A DNA stretch of 64,000 nt from a virus. The DNA lies in IMG/VR virus record IMGVR_UViG_3300021963_000027, positions 1 through 64,000 of that record. The stretch is one strand, 5' to 3'. The position numbers and the translations under genes were made by a program. The notes under the pieces are model-generated. The model saw only the letters and a list, made by a program, of their open reading frames with translations, made no database searches and was not told the DNA's origin. This document shows, piece after piece, positions 3,440 through 52,174 of this stretch (the stretch's first letter is position 1; every line of letters starts with the position of its first letter).

Positions 3440-3831
3440 TGAAAAAAAATCAATTAATCGAACAATTGCAAAAAATCAAAGGCAATCCCGAAATCAAAAT
3501 GTGGAACGGGTATGTCGATGATTGGATGGATATTAAGCTTTGCGAACAAGAGTTTGTCAAAGAATCGGAGGACTTTATTCGTTGGGGTGTCGAGATGGCT
3601 TGGAAGGAGCGTAACCAAAAATGGGAAATCCCTGAAGAGGCACAGATTCAAATCGAAGAGGTTATAAAAGAAATGTTAAAAAATAGACAGTGGGAATTGC
3701 CGAATCAATATTTGCAAACAGAAGAAGATGAGAAGCGTTGGTATGGTAAAAATAAAAAGAAGTTTGTTTTAATCAACGGAAAAATTCGCGGCAAATCAAT
3801 TGAAGATCGACTTGGAAAAGTCAGCTACTAA
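3439..3831 (+). CDS. Hypothetical protein, 130 aa
   Basis: The N-terminus (LIEQLQKIKGNPEIKMWNGY) resembles the small phage proteins that begin with a leucine-rich helix followed by a short D/N-G beta turn; compare the 64-aa gene at 28744. The C-terminal half is basic (KNKKKFVLINGKIRGKS). It sits directly upstream of the RNA ligase gene with no promoter between them, so the two are probably co-transcribed. Confidence 0.6.
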   Translation: MKKNQLIEQLQKIKGNPEIKMWNGYVDDWMDIKLCEQEFVKESEDFIRWGVEMAWKERNQKWEIPEEAQIQIEEVIKEMLKNRQWELPNQYLQTEEDEKRWYGKNKKKFVLINGKIRGKSIEDRLGKVSY

Positions 3832-3832
3832 T

Positions 3833-4924
3833 ATGAAACTACCAAATAAAGAAGAATTCAATTTCAAAGATTGCGTCATCGCTGGTGACGAATGTTGGCT
3901 CATTACACCAAAAGATATGAGCGTCAAATGGAACGACGAAAATACTCGTTTCCGTTCTTGTATTGTGCGTAAGTCTGACAATTTCGTAATTAGCCAAGGA
4001 TTCCGAAAATTTACAAATTTCGGAGAGCAACCAGCATTTGAACCATGGAAAGATTGTTGGAAATTTGAAGCGAGACACAAGTTGGATGGTAGTCTTTTAA
4101 TCATTTCTCGATACAAAGGTCAGTGGATTACCAGAACCCGTGGCACTGTAGATGCTCGCCAACTTCCTAATGGTCATGAGATTGACCTGTTAATTGAAAA
4201 ATATAAAAAATTTTTTGAAGATAGTGATGCTATTGATAGCATATCAGCATTAGAGCAATCTTGGTTATTTGAATGGACTACTCCGTCCAATATTATTGTA
4301 TTGAAAGAGTCCGATGAGTATGAATTAACTTTAATCGGTATTGTTTCCAATGAGGATGCAGCATACTATAGTCAGGCATATGTAGATATATGTGCGATTC
4401 AATACGATTTTAAACGTCCAGAGATGTATCATTACAATTCTGTTTCAGAGTGCATTGCTGATGTTACTGCTTGGAAAGGTAAAGAGGGCGTTGTCATTTA
4501 CTCTCCCAATGGTCAAACTCTCAAGAAAATCAAAGCAAGTGAATACTGTGAACTTCATAAAATTGCTACTGGAATTAAAAATGTAAAAAATGTTCTGGAT
4601 GTATTTATGGAGTCCCCAAAATTCACCAAATATGAAGATTTCTATAGCCATATTGAAAAGTTACTCGACTTTGAGATCGCGGAAAAATGCAAACCATTTA
4701 TCCAAGAAATCACTGATGCCTATGCTAAGTTCGTAAAGGGTGTGGATAATATGAATGAGCGTATTCCTTTTATTCAGAATTACGAAACTCGCAAAGAACA
4801 AGCAATGGCGATTCAACAAGAGTTCCGTGATTGGAAGACTGCTATTGCATTTCTTCTACTTGACAATCGTAAGGTTGATGATAAAGTTGTGCGCAAAGCA
4901 ATGGAGAAAATCTTAGAACTATGA
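3833..4924 (+). CDS. rnlA: RNA ligase, T4 Rnl1 (RnlA) type
   Basis: 363 aa, close to the 374 of T4 RnlA. The nucleotidyltransferase motif I is KLDGS at about residue 83 and contains the AMP-accepting lysine. Upstream is the Rnl1-typical RKFTNFGE. Motif IIIa (WLFEWTT), motif IV (EGVVIY) and motif V (LKKIKASEY) follow in order. Rnl1 joins 3'-OH to 5'-phosphate RNA ends and, in T4, reseals tRNAs cut by host anticodon nucleases. The ATG at 3833 follows the previous stop. The frame is open further up, but those extra codons lie inside the upstream gene. No T4-like Pnkp partner is visible in the window. Confidence 0.93.
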   Translation: MKLPNKEEFNFKDCVIAGDECWLITPKDMSVKWNDENTRFRSCIVRKSDNFVISQGFRKFTNFGEQPAFEPWKDCWKFEARHKLDGSLLIISRYKGQWITRTRGTVDARQLPNGHEIDLLIEKYKKFFEDSDAIDSISALEQSWLFEWTTPSNIIVLKESDEYELTLIGIVSNEDAAYYSQAYVDICAIQYDFKRPEMYHYNSVSECIADVTAWKGKEGVVIYSPNGQTLKKIKASEYCELHKIATGIKNVKNVLDVFMESPKFTKYEDFYSHIEKLLDFEIAEKCKPFIQEITDAYAKFVKGVDNMNERIPFIQNYETRKEQAMAIQQEFRDWKTAIAFLLLDNRKVDDKVVRKAMEKILEL

Positions 4925-23281: not shown

Positions 23282-24661
23282 ATGATTAGTATCTCTAAAA
23301 ATGCAGACCCGAATTACCTTGCTACGGTAATTGAATGCCCTGAATTGAAGAATCATCCAAATGCTGACCGTCTGGAGATTACTAATGTGTTTGGTGGTGA
23401 TGTGATCGTTGCCAAAGGACAGTATCAAAAAGGCGAATTGCTATGCTATTTTCCAGTGGAGTCTTGTATCTCACAGAAGTTCTTGGCATGGGCTAATCTG
23501 TTAGATAAAGCAGAATCGAATGCTGATGGTAAGACCAAGGGCTTTTTCTCATCGAAAAATGGTCGTGTTCGTGCTATTAAATTAAGAGAGATTCCAAGTC
23601 AAGGATTCCTTTTCAAAGTCTCTAAGCTTGCTGAATACTACGGTGTTAAAGAATCTGTGTTCAAATTGGGAGAGTCATTTGATACTATCAATGATGATCT
23701 ACTGGTGAAGAAATATGTATCAGGAGAACGCAAGAGTGGAAATCAGAATGAGTCTAAGAAGCGCATTCCAAAATGGATTGAAAATACTGTTCGTATCTTC
23801 CCTCTTCCCATTCGTAAGCGTCTATACACTGGTATCAATTACTTCTACGATAAGAACAAGCAAGGTATCGGTAGCTTGATTGTGGATGGGCATTGGGCAT
23901 TCCATTATAAAACAGAAGGGGCTGGTAGAAATATACACATTTTATCACCAGAGGATACAATAATTATTACAGAAAAATTACACGGTGCTAATGGGGTATA
24001 TGGTAACATTCTTTGTAAAAAACCTTTTAATATTTTTCGATACTTTGGAAAAAAAATCGGTTTTAGTGTTGAAGAGACGGAACATAAGTTGGTTTACAGT
24101 AGCAGAAACATTCTAAAAAATAGGAGAGATGGTAAATATACTGATGATGTGTGGGGCAATGTAGCACAAGATATTGATGGTAAATTACCAAAGGATATTA
24201 TTCTATATGGAGAATTAATCGGTTGGTCATCTGATAATAAATGTATTCAGAAGAATTATGACTACTCACTGCCTAATGGTAAGGTCGGGTTTAGAGTATT
24301 TCGTGGAGTTCGAAATACTCAAGAAGGTAAACAAATTGAACTATCTTGGGATGAGCTTGTGGAAATTTGTGAATATTCAAATTTGGAAATGGTTCCCATT
24401 CACTATAAAGGCTTGGTAAAAGATTTGTTTGATATTCATATTGATGATACATGGCGCGATAAATTTCTTTCAAATCTGGCGAAAAAATTCTTCAAAAATA
24501 AATGCCATTATTGTAAAAATTCTGTTGTAAATGAGGGGGTCGTGTTGAGAATCGAATCTTCCGAGCGCAAAACAGTATTAAAATATAAAAATCCGAGCTT
24601 TCTAGTACAAGAAAGTAGTGCCAGAGATATCAACGAAGAAAATATTGATGAAGAAAATTAA
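23282..24661 (+). CDS. RNA ligase of the Rnl5/DraRnl-like type, 459 aa
   Basis: Two parts. Residues 1-110 form an OB-fold-like domain (HPNADRLEITNVFGGDVIVA), as in the N-terminal part of Deinococcus RNA ligase. The ligase core starts with motif I KLHGANG at about 233 (nucleophile lysine), then YSSRN (motif III), LYGELIG, EGVVLRIE (motif IV) and LKYKNP (motif V). DraRnl-type enzymes seal nicks with a 3'-OH RNA end. This is a second RNA ligase besides Rnl1. It ends in a 4-nt overlap with the opposing GIY-YIG gene. Confidence 0.85.
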   Translation: MISISKNADPNYLATVIECPELKNHPNADRLEITNVFGGDVIVAKGQYQKGELLCYFPVESCISQKFLAWANLLDKAESNADGKTKGFFSSKNGRVRAIKLREIPSQGFLFKVSKLAEYYGVKESVFKLGESFDTINDDLLVKKYVSGERKSGNQNESKKRIPKWIENTVRIFPLPIRKRLYTGINYFYDKNKQGIGSLIVDGHWAFHYKTEGAGRNIHILSPEDTIIITEKLHGANGVYGNILCKKPFNIFRYFGKKIGFSVEETEHKLVYSSRNILKNRRDGKYTDDVWGNVAQDIDGKLPKDIILYGELIGWSSDNKCIQKNYDYSLPNGKVGFRVFRGVRNTQEGKQIELSWDELVEICEYSNLEMVPIHYKGLVKDLFDIHIDDTWRDKFLSNLAKKFFKNKCHYCKNSVVNEGVVLRIESSERKTVLKYKNPSFLVQESSARDINEENIDEEN

Positions 24662-26926: not shown

Positions 26927-27097
26927 ATGGCTAATCGTAATACTAAATCGGCTCGCAGAGCGGGATTCGCAAGTAAAAAAGACCAGAACAACAACGGCAC
27001 TCGTATTTTCAAGGGCAAAGCTTGTGACACTGGATGGGATGCTCCTGAGAGTAAACACAAGAAGCGCAAGGTATATCAGCGCAACAATTCCAATTAA
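26927..27097 (+). CDS. Small basic protein, 56 aa
   Basis: Starts MANRNTKSARRAGFASKKDQ and ends in a basic tail (SKHKKRKVYQRNNSN). Very basic and polar, suited to RNA or DNA binding. A CTAG-box promoter with TACAAT lies upstream with a 24-25 nt leader. Unknown family. Confidence 0.6.
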   Translation: MANRNTKSARRAGFASKKDQNNNGTRIFKGKACDTGWDAPESKHKKRKVYQRNNSN

Positions 27098-27105
27098 CGA
27101 TTTTT

Positions 27106-27285
27106 CGCTTCGGCAGTATCAATAAATGACCAGAACCTCCCTCTACTATTCACTTAGCATGGAGACTGGTGGGATCGAGAAATAGAGCCTTCGGGTGCGC
27201 GGATAAAGTCAGTAATGACAGGTAGTAATTCTATCCTCCCTAAAACTCGGATACTGAAAAGGTAGGCGCAGACCGTTCCGAAGCG
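27106..27285 (+). ncRNA. Structured RNA of about 180 nt with nested stems and GNRA/UUCG loops
   Basis: Closing stem CGCTTCGG/CCGAAGCG (27106-27113 with 27278-27285), then CAGTATC/GATACTG (27114-27120 with 27250-27256). Inside are hairpin ACCAG-CTCC/GGAG-CTGGT (27129-27170), a UUCG-capped CC/GG (27188-27195), a GUAA-capped GTCA/TGAC (27208-27219) and helix ATAGA/TCTAT (27182-27186 with 27230-27234). No ORF crosses it. It does not match the sequence hallmarks I know for RNase P, tmRNA or 6S RNA. Confidence 0.75.
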
Positions 27286-30418: not shown

Positions 30419-30919
30419 ATGCACGAAATATACAATCCCATTAATCTTTTAAACAAAGAAGTTGAAATCTCTTATCATGTTAGTGATTTGGGAGAAGATG
30501 CTAAAGTAATTGAAATTGAACCTGTAGATGGGCAAAGACGATTTGAAATTGTTTTTGCGAAATTTCCAGAGGAACAAGATGACGAACGCTTTTTTTGGAC
30601 AGATCAAAAACCGTATGAGATTGTTGGTGATAAAGCTGTATTCTCTGATATTGGTCATCCACGAAGAATTTACTTGAATATTAAAAAACTAGAGTATACT
30701 GAAGAAGTAACAAGTGAACAAACAAACAACGAATCAAATATGAAAACAACTGTTAAAGAATTGAGCGATAAATTGGGTGTTGATGTGGTCTATATCAATG
30801 GATTCCTTCAAACACTGGTCAAGATTGGTAAAGCAGAAGTGGTCGGTAAGGTTGAAAAACCTGCTGGTGCGCGTGGTAAACCATCTAACATCTATCAAAT
30901 CGCAGAAGGTATTCTGTAA
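30419..30919 (+). CDS. Fused ORF: small beta protein plus winged-helix domain, 166 aa
   Basis: The reading frame passes through a full CTAG box at 30682-30700 without stopping, so the box is translated as NIKKLEYT. Before it lies a 90-aa beta-rich domain. After it, from ATG 30740, comes a winged-helix domain (VKELSDKLGVDVVYINGFLQ, then PAGARGKPSNIYQ). The promoter can make a separate mRNA for the 59-aa DNA-binding domain, so one locus may give a long and a short product. Confidence 0.6.
   Translation: MHEIYNPINLLNKEVEISYHVSDLGEDAKVIEIEPVDGQRRFEIVFAKFPEEQDDERFFWTDQKPYEIVGDKAVFSDIGHPRRIYLNIKKLEYTEEVTSEQTNNESNMKTTVKELSDKLGVDVVYINGFLQTLVKIGKAEVVGKVEKPAGARGKPSNIYQIAEGIL
30740..30919 (+). CDS. Putative internal gene for a winged-helix protein, 59 aa
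   Basis: Starts at the ATG 34 nt after the internal -10 (TATACT). Encodes MKTTVKELSDKLGVDVVYIN and ends GKPSNIYQIAEGIL, a complete small winged-helix DNA-binding domain similar to phage transcription regulators. In frame with the 166-aa ORF, so it would be its C-terminal part expressed alone. Confidence 0.55.
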   Translation: MKTTVKELSDKLGVDVVYINGFLQTLVKIGKAEVVGKVEKPAGARGKPSNIYQIAEGIL

Positions 30920-30927
30920 ATTTTAAT

Positions 30928-31153
30928 GAAACAGCGGCGTGGAAAGTAGACACGCAGGAACAAAAGAACTGGAACAAAACCAACACGGAGATGCACCGAG
31001 ATGTGATTGTGAGTGAAGGTTGTATGACCGAAGAGAAGACCCGTGCATGGGGAGAAGACGGGAGCTTGATGTGGTGTCACATTTTAACGCTCAACAATAC
31101 GTCGATGGGTTTTAAACTCATTCTAGCAGGAGTTACACCCTGCCTGTTTCACC
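30928..31153 (+). ncRNA. tRNA-like element 1, with long insertion
   Basis: Acceptor-like 7-bp stem GAAACAG/CTGTTTC (30928-30934 with 31144-31150), then CG and a D-arm-like GCGTG/CACGC. Near the 3' end are an anticodon-arm-like ATGGG-TTTTAAA-CTCAT (31105-31121) and a T-arm-like GCAGG/CCTGC (31126-31143). About 150 nt lie between D-arm and anticodon arm. Read as a tRNA, the anticodon would be TTA, pairing with the UAA stop. The T-loop is not canonical, so function is uncertain. Confidence 0.5.
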
Positions 31154-31162
31154 TTTTTTAAT

Positions 31163-31274
31163 GAAGCAACGGTGTGGATGGAGACACATAGACCTCGACC
31201 CCAGAGATGGATGATGGTCGCCTTACCCCAAAGTCAAAGGATAGGTGCAGTTGGTTCGAATCCAACTTGCTTCG
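31163..31274 (+). ncRNA. tRNA-like element 2, homologous to element 1
   Basis: Acceptor GAAGCAA/TTGCTTC (31163-31169 with 31267-31273), CG, D-arm GTGT/ACAC, and a perfect T-arm GTTGG-TTCGAAT-CCAAC (31250-31266). About 62 nt lie between the D and T arms, too many for a normal tRNA, and no standard anticodon arm is evident. The 5' part aligns with element 1 (GAARCAR-CG-GYGTGGA, then GACAC). A T-run follows. The two form a tandem pair of unknown class. Confidence 0.6.
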
Positions 31275-31285
31275 CTTTTTTTAAT

Positions 31286-31387
31286 ATGAACTTAGAACTG
31301 AAAAACATACTAGAAAATCAAGCATGGGATGATGAATTCTATGCAGCCATGTTGGAGAAATCACAACAACAATCGCGTATAATATAA
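31286..31387 (+). CDS. Hypothetical peptide, 33 aa
   Basis: Helical and acidic (NLELKNILENQAWDDEFYAA). Lies between the tRNA-like element and the next gene, with an A-rich start context. Modest evidence. Confidence 0.4.
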   Translation: MNLELKNILENQAWDDEFYAAMLEKSQQQSRII

Positions 31388-32154: not shown

Positions 32155-32161
32155 CAATTTT

Positions 32162-32226
32162 GGTGGGGAGGTGGGATACCATGAGTGTGGTCATTCTGTC
32201 ATTGTCTTTTTCATACCCTCCTCACC
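32162..32226 (+). ncRNA. Stem-loop between genes
   Basis: A 10-bp stem GGTGGGGAGG/CCTCCTCACC (32162-32171 and 32217-32226, one G-T pair) encloses 45 nt with an inner ACCA/TGGT hairpin. No T-run follows, so this is probably not a simple terminator. It could be a leader structure for the gene at 32243. Confidence 0.5.
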
Positions 32227-32242
32227 ATCAATTTTCAAATAT

Positions 32243-41644: not shown

Positions 41645-41739
41645 AAGGGTGTACCAGTACGCACTTCTAATGCGTGGACGTTTAAATATACTGTAATTGG
41701 ATATGTCCTATGTAGGTTCGAATCCTATCATCCTTGCCA
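41645..41739 (+). tRNA. Unusual tRNA-Arg(TCT) lacking a D-arm, with large variable arm
   Basis: Acceptor AAGGGTG/CATCCTT (41645-41651 with 41729-41735), anticodon arm ACGCA-CTTCTAA-TGCGT with TCT at 41666-41668, T-arm GTAGG-TTCGAAT-CCTAT, discriminator G and encoded CCA. Only 7 nt lie between acceptor and anticodon stems, so there is no D-arm. The variable region is about 36 nt, with GGAC/GTCC. The 3' part overlaps the end of the opposing endonuclease gene. Confidence 0.7.
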
Positions 41740-52066: not shown

Positions 52067-52140
52067 GTTGTCGGTGGCGAAGTGGTAACGCGAGGCTGAA
52101 TTAACAGCAAGAAACGTGAGTTCGATTCTCACCCGACGAC
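52067..52140 (+). tRNA. tRNA of undetermined type, 8-bp acceptor, 6-nt anticodon loop
   Basis: Acceptor GTTGTCGG/CCGACGAC (52067-52074 with 52133-52140), D-arm with GCGAAGTGGTAACGC, anticodon arm GCTG-AATTAA-CAGC with only 6 loop bases, and T-arm GTGAG-TTCGATT-CTCAC. The extra G at the 5' end paired with C at the discriminator position is a tRNA-His trait, but no GTG anticodon is present. Decoding specificity cannot be assigned. Confidence 0.75.
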
Positions 52141-52174
52141 ACACTCTTTAAAAACTAACCTAAAATAATACCAC

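What the first reader, a model, noticed from the sequence alone, without database searches (positions are those of the whole stretch)
30928..31274. Tandem pair of tRNA-like RNAs with oversized cores
Both start GAARCAR-CG-GYGTGGA with a D-arm, and both end with matching 7-bp acceptor strands; the second has a perfect T-arm. The first has about 150 extra nt before an anticodon-like arm TTTTAAA (anticodon TTA, reading UAA), the second about 40 extra nt. They could be decoys for anticodon nucleases, aminoacylated non-decoding RNAs, or tRNAs with inserts.
Basis: partly seen in the sequence, partly recalled or inferred. Interest (0 to 1): 0.72.

Follow-up and report, generated by a model that had tools for sequence, protein, structure and literature searches.

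The report
Phage RNAs with swappable cores
The two odd "tRNAs" are not decoding tRNAs: the first belongs to a large, apparently undescribed family of phage RNAs that keep one constant tRNA-shaped frame while exchanging whatever sits inside it, and their most likely job is to occupy or block host factors, probably the ones that handle or attack tRNA.

Summary
RNA1 (30928-31150) and RNA2 (31163-31273) are two tandem structured RNAs in a noncoding gap of an uncultivated 184-kb phage. The reading "tRNA with insert, anticodon UUA" does not hold. RNA1 lacks the tRNA D- and T-loop residues, and its "anticodon" loop is TTTTAAA, TGATC or AATA in three relatives. Pattern scans of IMG/VR, then a structural scan, gave 159 distinct relatives (172 raw hits against 2 in reversed sequence). 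None matched Rfam 15. All share a frame: a closing helix (6-23 bp, richly covarying), a short linker, hairpin 1 (loop GAAAG[U/C]NGA), a core, then hairpin 2 (loop RGUNRCGN) stacked on the closing helix. The two loops pair: C-G 139 times, U-A 19, U-G 1, C-A 0. The core (44-270 nt) is mostly unrelated between members. In three close phage pairs (flanks 94-98% identical, window included) the core was replaced exactly between the hairpins. No partner gene recurs, and antisense matches are not enriched. The best-supported mechanism is a trans-acting decoy or inhibitor RNA on a tRNA-elbow-like scaffold. The structure is near certain; the function is inferred. RNA2 is a sister chimera with the same 5' half and a true T-arm.

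The parts
30928..31150 (+). RNA1, window member of the elbow-shell RNA family (closing helix is 8 bp if U30927-A31151 is counted)
   Evidence: homologues in L009/L027, L028, L105, L267, L274, L287
30928..30934 (+). RNA1 closing helix, 5' strand GAAACAG, pairs with 31144-31150
   Evidence: 7 of 8 pairs of this helix have a change on both sides in the six-sequence alignment, 100% of cells paired
30937..30955 (+). RNA1 hairpin 1 (D-arm-like), GCGTG-GAAAGTAGA-CACGC, 2-nt linker CG before it
   Evidence: stem varies with compensation across the family (GCGTG/CACGC, GCGCT/AGCGC, GTGTG/CACAC, GCACG/CGTGC)
30946..30948 (+). Loop-loop contact, hairpin 1 side (GUA), can pair with UAC 31134-31136 in hairpin 2; the pair 30947-31135 is the covarying one
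   Evidence: Top-ranked non-helix column pair of the shell; C-G 111, U-A 18, U-G 1, C-A 0 in 130 shells; 139/19/1/0 in 159 members
30956..31125 (+). RNA1 variable core, 170 nt; replaced by an unrelated 147-nt core in near-identical phage L009/L027
30991..30996 (+). Core long-range helix, AUGCAC, pairs with GUGCAU 31043-31048
   Evidence: AUGCAC/GUGCAU, AUACAC/GUGUAU, ACACAC/GUGUGU in six members
31043..31048 (+). Core long-range helix, GUGCAU, 3' strand
31105..31121 (+).
   Evidence: loops TTTTAAA, TGATC, AATA in window, L009, L028
31126..31143 (+). RNA1 hairpin 2 (T-arm position), GCAGG-AGTTACAC-CCTGC, directly stacked on the closing helix
   Evidence: 4 of 5 pairs with a change on both sides; family consensus GCCGG-RGUNRCGN-CCGGC
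31144..31150 (+). RNA1 closing helix, 3' strand CTGTTTC, then A31151
31163..31273 (+). RNA2, tRNA-like sister RNA with an unusual 60-nt middle
   Evidence: copies in L009 and L012
31172..31189 (+). RNA2 D-arm-like hairpin GTGTG-GATGGAGA-CACAT; its 5' half is closely similar to that of RNA1, with compensated stem changes
   Evidence: cross-matches of the two 5' ends in blastn
31250..31266 (+). RNA2 canonical T-arm GTTGG-TTCGAAT-CCAAC

Best explanation
RNA1 is one member of a widespread family of autonomous, trans-acting phage noncoding RNAs. Shown by comparison: a constant frame (closing helix, 2-nt linker, D-arm-like hairpin 1, hairpin 2 stacked on the closing helix as a T-arm is) is locked by Watson-Crick pairing between the two hairpin loops, and it carries an exchangeable core. 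Inferred: the frame imitates the acceptor/elbow half of tRNA, so the RNA is stable and, in phages with tRNA arrays, is matured alongside phage tRNAs, while the core is the specific part that binds a host factor. The core is swapped between close relatives because the factor differs between hosts or escapes. The most likely factors are host proteins that handle or attack tRNA, such as antiphage anticodon or tRNA nucleases, so the RNA would act as a decoy or inhibitor. RNA2 would do the same with a canonical T-arm in place of hairpin 2. Confidence in the structural part is about 0.95; the figure below is for the whole, mechanism included.
For: Structure, strong: 159 members, 172 raw hits against 2 in a reversed control; loop-loop pair 139 C-G, 19 U-A, 1 U-G, 0 C-A, Fisher p = 1e-23 without tree correction, best non-helix column pair; both loop types occur on the same window-type core. 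Trans-acting: no recurring neighbour gene, mixed orientation to neighbours, -10 boxes concentrated 10-13 nt before the closing helix, Persinger copy followed by a terminator-like hairpin and T-run. Phage-borne: 1 of 369 genomes of the class, a Pseudomonas contig that was the seed. Swappable core: window/L009, L277/L284, L339/L238 have 94-98% identical flanks and unalignable cores, with boundaries at the hairpins. tRNA link: all 16 members with a tRNA within 1 kb are on the same strand, and L274 ends 1 nt before a tRNA-Val; 8 cores hold a perfect T-arm (0.09 expected, 0 in reverse complement). The window encodes two RNA ligases, one related to T4 Rnl1.
Against: No transcript, binding or phenotype data exist. 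Only 5% of cores have an obvious T-arm, and the tRNA proximity excess is modest (16 against 8.8 expected, maximum 12 in 200 draws). The loop contact is antiparallel Watson-Crick, not the G18-Psi55/G19-C56 arrangement of tRNA, so elbow mimicry is by shape only. Closing helices up to 23 bp are un-tRNA-like. Core exchange could be neutral recombination between conserved ends.
Confidence: 0.4

Rival explanations
1. The RNA is a base-pairing regulator: the frame stabilises the RNA and the variable core is antisense to a host, prophage or competitor transcript, which would explain why cores change freely.
For: Constant frame with variable payload resembles guide-type RNAs; cores are mostly unrelated between members and exchanged cleanly.
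Against: Longest exact matches of cores to the rest of their own locus equal the reversed-core control (10.41 vs 10.40 nt, 116 members; RNA1 12 vs 12, RNA2 13 vs 12). Within the window type the core conserves loops and a covarying helix rather than a changing single-stranded stretch. Host targets could not be tested.
Confidence: 0.18
2. Selfish or mobile RNA gene: the shell is a mobile cassette that spreads between phages like homing elements, with cores carried along and no benefit to the phage.
For: Identical closing helix and hairpin 2 with unrelated flanks and cores (group CAGAACGG in five members); homing endonuclease genes occur near some copies and in the window.
Against: Core, not shell, is what is replaced between close relatives; no ORF or endonuclease recurs regularly next to it; strong helix covariation implies selection on the RNA product.
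Confidence: 0.12
3. Cis-acting element for packaging, transcription or processing of the adjacent gene.
For: The Ssp-JY40 copy lies directly after the terminase large subunit gene.
Against: Neighbouring genes and orientation differ everywhere; other copies lie beside repressor, integrase, recombination or tRNA genes.
Confidence: 0.07
4. tRNA genes with unusual introns or inserts that are removed to give functional tRNAs.
For: Same order of elements as a tRNA; a 5-bp stem with 7-nt loop in RNA1 and a CAT-type arm in A0 of L009; a true group I intron tRNA-Leu exists in a related phage.
Against: No D-loop GG or T-loop UUCRA in RNA1; anticodon loop not conserved; no intron model matches; core has its own conserved fold and the whole RNA is preserved with compensation.
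Confidence: 0.03

Closest known systems
Bacteriophage T4 species 1 and 2 RNAs (RNAC, RNAD)
   Same: Phage-encoded RNAs of 139 and 119 nt beside the tRNA cluster; RNAC has a perfect T-arm CCGGG-TTCGAAT-CCCGG next to a terminal helix and an oversized core. Function still unknown (PMC3014915, PMC9697503, PMC12685909).
   Different: No GAAAG-Y loop hairpin, no hairpin 2 loop motif, imperfect terminal helix; no sequence similarity seen. Closer in kind to RNA2 than to RNA1.
Phage tRNAs that counter tRNA-cleaving defences (T5 tRNA-Tyr against retron-Eco7, T6 tRNA-Tyr against Septu)
   Same: Phage RNA made against tRNA-targeting immunity is an established strategy (PMC11555353, PMC13096335).
   Different: Those are ordinary decoding tRNAs that replace or dilute the target; RNA1 has no usable anticodon.
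tmRNA
   Same: Acceptor plus T-arm stack and D-arm region with the anticodon arm replaced by a large domain (own knowledge of tmRNA).
   Different: No Rfam tmRNA match, no G3-U70, no CCA, closing helix of the family not limited to 7 bp.
Viral tRNA-like structures (TYMV type) and the tRNA elbow
   Same: Structural imitation of the elbow by a D-like/T-like loop contact (PMC4810234).
   Different: Separate dsDNA-phage RNA; the contact is a short antiparallel kissing helix.
GOLLD and ROOL RNAs
   Same: Noncoding RNAs of phages and bacteria with intricate folds (PMC12286853, listed; phage and tRNA proximity from own knowledge).
   Different: Much larger; their Rfam models do not match here.

Membership tests
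Canonical tRNA (Rfam RF00005) | Covariance model match over gathering score or ARAGORN call | tested here: not met
   No call for RNA1 or RNA2; the L012 copy of RNA2 scores 20.2 bits against 29
Canonical tRNA (Rfam RF00005) | T-loop UUCRANN and D-loop GG | tested here: not met
   RNA1 loops are AGTTACAC and GAAAGTAGA. RNA2 does have TTCGAAT and GG
Canonical tRNA (Rfam RF00005) | Conserved anticodon arm with U33 | tested here: not met
   Loop TTTTAAA/TGATC/AATA in three homologues; none recognisable in RNA2
Canonical tRNA (Rfam RF00005) | CCA addition and aminoacylation | not testable with these tools
   No CCA is encoded; needs end mapping
Group I intron in tRNA (RF00028) | Catalytic core match | tested here: not met
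   No match in the window, although the search finds one in related G014
tmRNA (RF00023) | Covariance model match | tested here: not met
   No match in window; the model works, as it finds a tmRNA in L105
Any Rfam 15 family | Match over gathering score at a member | tested here: not met
   Window and about 50 loci fetched with the family patterns gave only tRNA, tmRNA and one intron, none at a member
T4 RNAC/RNAD | Sequence or frame homology | tested here: inconclusive
   Frame motifs absent from the T4 sequences by inspection; no formal alignment or model score was computed
Elbow-shell RNA family (defined here) | Closing helix, 2-nt linker, hairpin 1 GAAAG-Y loop, hairpin 2 RGUNRC loop stacked on closing helix, loop-loop pair | tested here: met
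   RNA1 meets all
Elbow-shell RNA family (defined here) | Same features in RNA2 | tested here: not met
   Shares closing helix, linker and 5' half but has a tRNA-type T-arm and D-loop; a related chimera, not a strict member
Decoy or inhibitor of tRNA-targeting defence | Binding to, or cleavage by, such a nuclease and protection of the phage | not testable with these tools
   Needs experiment

The most novel reading that the evidence does not exclude
A phage-wide RNA class built like an antibody or guide: one constant, loop-locked tRNA-elbow-like scaffold presenting rapidly exchanged RNA cores that each inhibit a different host target, with no protein partner, so that phages retarget by swapping the core between the two hairpins.
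Probability: 0.35. Interest if true: 0.92.

Novelty: categorically new. Interest (0 to 1): 0.8.

Why it matters
Its frame is now defined tightly enough to look for all members, and its cores give testable differences: near-identical phages that differ only in the core let one ask directly what the core does in different hosts. If the cores inhibit host factors, they are a kind of counter-defence that uses RNA alone. It may also illuminate T4 RNAC and RNAD, whose function is recorded as unknown in 2010, 2022 and 2025 papers.

Tried and rejected
Blast of the locus against GenBank phages found nothing useful. L029 was a chance pattern hit inside a gene. HTVC019P and the weak Mycobacterium and Klebsiella matches lack the frame or were not followed. 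pCB2047-A has the hairpin 1 stem but no full frame was found, so it is not counted. An RNase P P9-like reading of hairpin 2 and a Y RNA (YrlA) reading were considered from memory and dropped: no Rfam match. Antisense cores within the phage locus: tested, no signal. Recurrent partner gene: tested, none. Several pattern hits (e.g. L108, L113, L118, L122, L123, L125, L130) have hairpin 2 only and are not members. A last motif scan for the window-type core found nothing, probably because the pattern was too strict.

Full report
WHAT WAS CHECKED. The window is bases 1-64000 of a 184,181-base IMG/VR virus record. Between the end of an ORF at 30919 and a short ORF near 31288 lies about 350 nt without a plausible conserved gene. 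It holds the two elements described. RNA1 is closed by GAAACAG 30928-30934 and CTGTTTC 31144-31150, RNA2 by GAAGCAA 31163-31169 and TTGCTTC 31267-31273. ARAGORN finds 11 other tRNAs in the window but neither of these. Rfam finds none either, even at permissive thresholds. Folding alone is only mildly better than shuffled sequence for the two window RNAs (z -1.9 and -1.4), so comparison was needed.

RELATIVES OF THE LOCUS. Neighbour-gene searches brought 16 related viral contigs. The slot after the conserved ORF differs in nearly every relative. L009 holds four elements in a row (A0, RNA1 with another core, a 73-nt tRNA-Val-like RNA, RNA2). L012 holds RNA2 and the Val-like RNA. G007 and G012 hold other elbow-type RNAs, G011 an odd tRNA, and none was seen in G008, G009, G010 and G013. 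Between window and L009 the flanks are 97-98% identical and the RNA1 shell is identical but for one loop base, yet the core is replaced (170 nt against 147 nt, no alignment).

THE FAMILY. A 19-base pattern of the 5' half found an RNA1 homologue in L028. A 5' hairpin pattern found L101-L105 and one bacterial contig (L106, Pseudomonas delhiensis). A structural scanner over all held sequence (both strands) gave 159 members with distinct cores. The same scanner gives 172 raw hits in real sequence and 2 in reversed sequence. Members also sit in GenBank phages PotUPM1, Persinger, POI1126, Orimi01, Ssp-JY40 and vB_PaeS-D14H, mostly in stretches without annotated features. A 30-base consensus of hairpin 1 found nothing in 5,426 E. 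coli genomes, and the exact hairpin pattern occurs in only 1 of 369 genomes of the Pseudomonas class, the seed itself. So the family is phage-borne as far as these searches go. The window and about 50 fetched loci were scanned with Rfam 15 without a match to this element.

ARCHITECTURE. Consensus of 130 shells: closing helix, linker CG, GCGUG-GAAAG[C/U]AGA-CACGC, core, GCCGG-RGUARCGN-CCGGC, closing helix. The spacing is that of tRNA: 2 nt between acceptor and D-arm, none between T-arm and acceptor, 5-bp T-stem. The closing helix uses all four Watson-Crick pairs at most positions. This part was demanded by the scanner, so pairing itself is not evidence there, but the diversity of pair types is. 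The loop-loop pair was not demanded: the scanner allowed C or U on one side and G or A on the other. The counts are C-G 139, U-A 19, U-G 1, C-A 0; Fisher p = 1e-23, uncorrected for relatedness. It is the strongest non-helix column pair. Both types occur among the six members with the window-type core, so the switch is not one ancient event tied to one core. The collection scans selected on one hairpin only, so they did not impose the association. G007 and G012 have unlike loops that can still pair (CUUA/UAAG or UCUU/AAGA; GGA/UCC; by inspection). The pairing is antiparallel, unlike G18-Psi55/G19-C56 of tRNA (PMC4810234), so the shape is analogous but the contact is not the same.

THE CORE. Cores run 44-270 nt, median 100. 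Most are unalignable with each other. One cluster has 16 members, including the Pseudomonas phage PotUPM1 and the P. delhiensis copy, and one has 6 (the window type). The window-type core has a 6-bp long-range helix, AUGCAC 30991-30996 with GUGCAU 31043-31048, which is AUACAC/GUGUAU in L028 and ACACAC/GUGUGU in L287. With shell and both contacts the structure pairs 156 of 156 cells; shuffles average 82% and slid versions 20-47%. The supposed anticodon loop is not conserved. Core replacement with boundaries at the two hairpins is seen in three pairs with both flanks 94-98% identical: window/L009, L277/L284 (157 against 63 nt) and L339/L238 (119 against 142 nt). L168/L226 show it with short shared flanking stretches. 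Eight cores contain a perfect TTCRANN T-arm (0.09 expected after shuffling, none in the reverse complements). L239 is close to a whole tRNA without U33 (by inspection). Anticodon-like arms are modestly enriched (10 against 2.9).

HOW IT IS LIKELY EXPRESSED. A -10-like hexamer begins 10-13 nt before the closing helix in 23 cases among 156 upstream regions, against about one per position elsewhere, which would place transcription start near the helix. Neighbour strands show no preference and no neighbour family recurs: of 525 neighbour proteins the largest cluster has 5 (terminase-like by its appearance). In some large phages members sit inside tRNA arrays. All 16 with a tRNA within 1 kb share its strand, with 1-2 nt spacing in L274 and L267, so tRNA-processing enzymes probably cut them out. 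In the window the nearest copies of the phage's repeated promoter-like motif are at 30682 and 31773, so RNA1 and RNA2 are probably read from 30682 with the small gene before them (inference).

FUNCTION. Shown: structure, phage linkage, exchange of the core. Inferred: trans action, because there is no fixed neighbour. Inferred more weakly: a decoy or inhibitor acting on host tRNA-handling or tRNA-attacking proteins, from the tRNA-like frame, tRNA-containing cores, tRNA-array position, and two RNA ligases in the window, one related to T4 Rnl1. Phage tRNAs are known to defeat tRNA-cleaving immunity (PMC11555353, PMC13096335). An antisense role is not supported within the phage loci, but host transcripts were not tested. 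RNA2 keeps the 5' half of the frame with a canonical T-arm and D-loop GG. It may be the more tRNA-like relative and needs its own test.

NOVELTY. T4 RNAC and RNAD are the nearest known kind, and papers of 2010, 2022 and 2025 still give no function for them. Literature searches were limited to open PMC papers, without bioRxiv, and found no description. A description in a subscription journal or preprint cannot be excluded.

LIMITS. Exact-pattern scans bias the sample to GC-rich members; counts are lower bounds; sequences are related, and no tree correction was made; no expression data were available.

Noticed in passing
L077 7113-7299 (G014:C1 about 26985-27276): tRNA-Leu(UAA) interrupted by a group I intron (RF00028, 70.8 bits) in a related phage.
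   Followed up: partly
L009 5309-5438: A0: a further elbow-type RNA with hairpin 2 loop AGTAACGC and a clean CAT anticodon-like arm (CTTGGA-CTCATAA-TCTAAG) after an insert; hairpin 1 differs.
   Followed up: partly
L009 5667-5739 and L012 4266-4338: 73-nt tRNA-Val(AAC)-like RNA without U33, part of the same array.
   Followed up: no
G004, G002, G014, G006, slot after the conserved ORF: Another possible RNA closed by covarying helices GGTTCGT/ACGAACC, GGTCCGT/ACGGACC, GGCCCGT/ACGGGCT.
   Followed up: no
L028 minus strand, about 8330-8060: Two further noncoding stretches closed by 9- and 11-bp helices just upstream of the RNA1 homologue and downstream of two tRNAs.
   Followed up: no
window 32158-32236: Intergenic stretch with a long terminal helix (z -2.4); possible further structured RNA.
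   Followed up: partly
window, 100 sites, e.g. 30682, 31773, 61421: Motif TTAAAAACTAGANTA (up to 2 mismatches), 100 sites against 1.5 expected, 98 on the + strand, mostly at gene starts: probably the phage's own promoter.
   Followed up: partly
window 41645-41736 and 52067-52142: Odd tRNAs: an Arg(TCT)-like one apparently without a D-arm and with a long variable region, and one with a non-standard anticodon loop.
   Followed up: no
window 3800-4924 and 23282-24661: Two RNA ligases (T4 Rnl1-like and DRB0094-like), suggesting tRNA repair.
   Followed up: partly
L105 3515-3895: A phage-contig tmRNA (135 bits) near the RNA1 homologue.
   Followed up: no
L134 2251-2322 and 2654-2724 (Ochrobactrum phage POI1126): Two tRNAs not annotated in the record, flanking a family member.
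   Followed up: partly
G015:C1:134940-135040 and G011:C1:38503-38597: tRNA-like RNAs of 95-101 nt with unusual middles; the G015 one has a GCA loop without U33.
   Followed up: no
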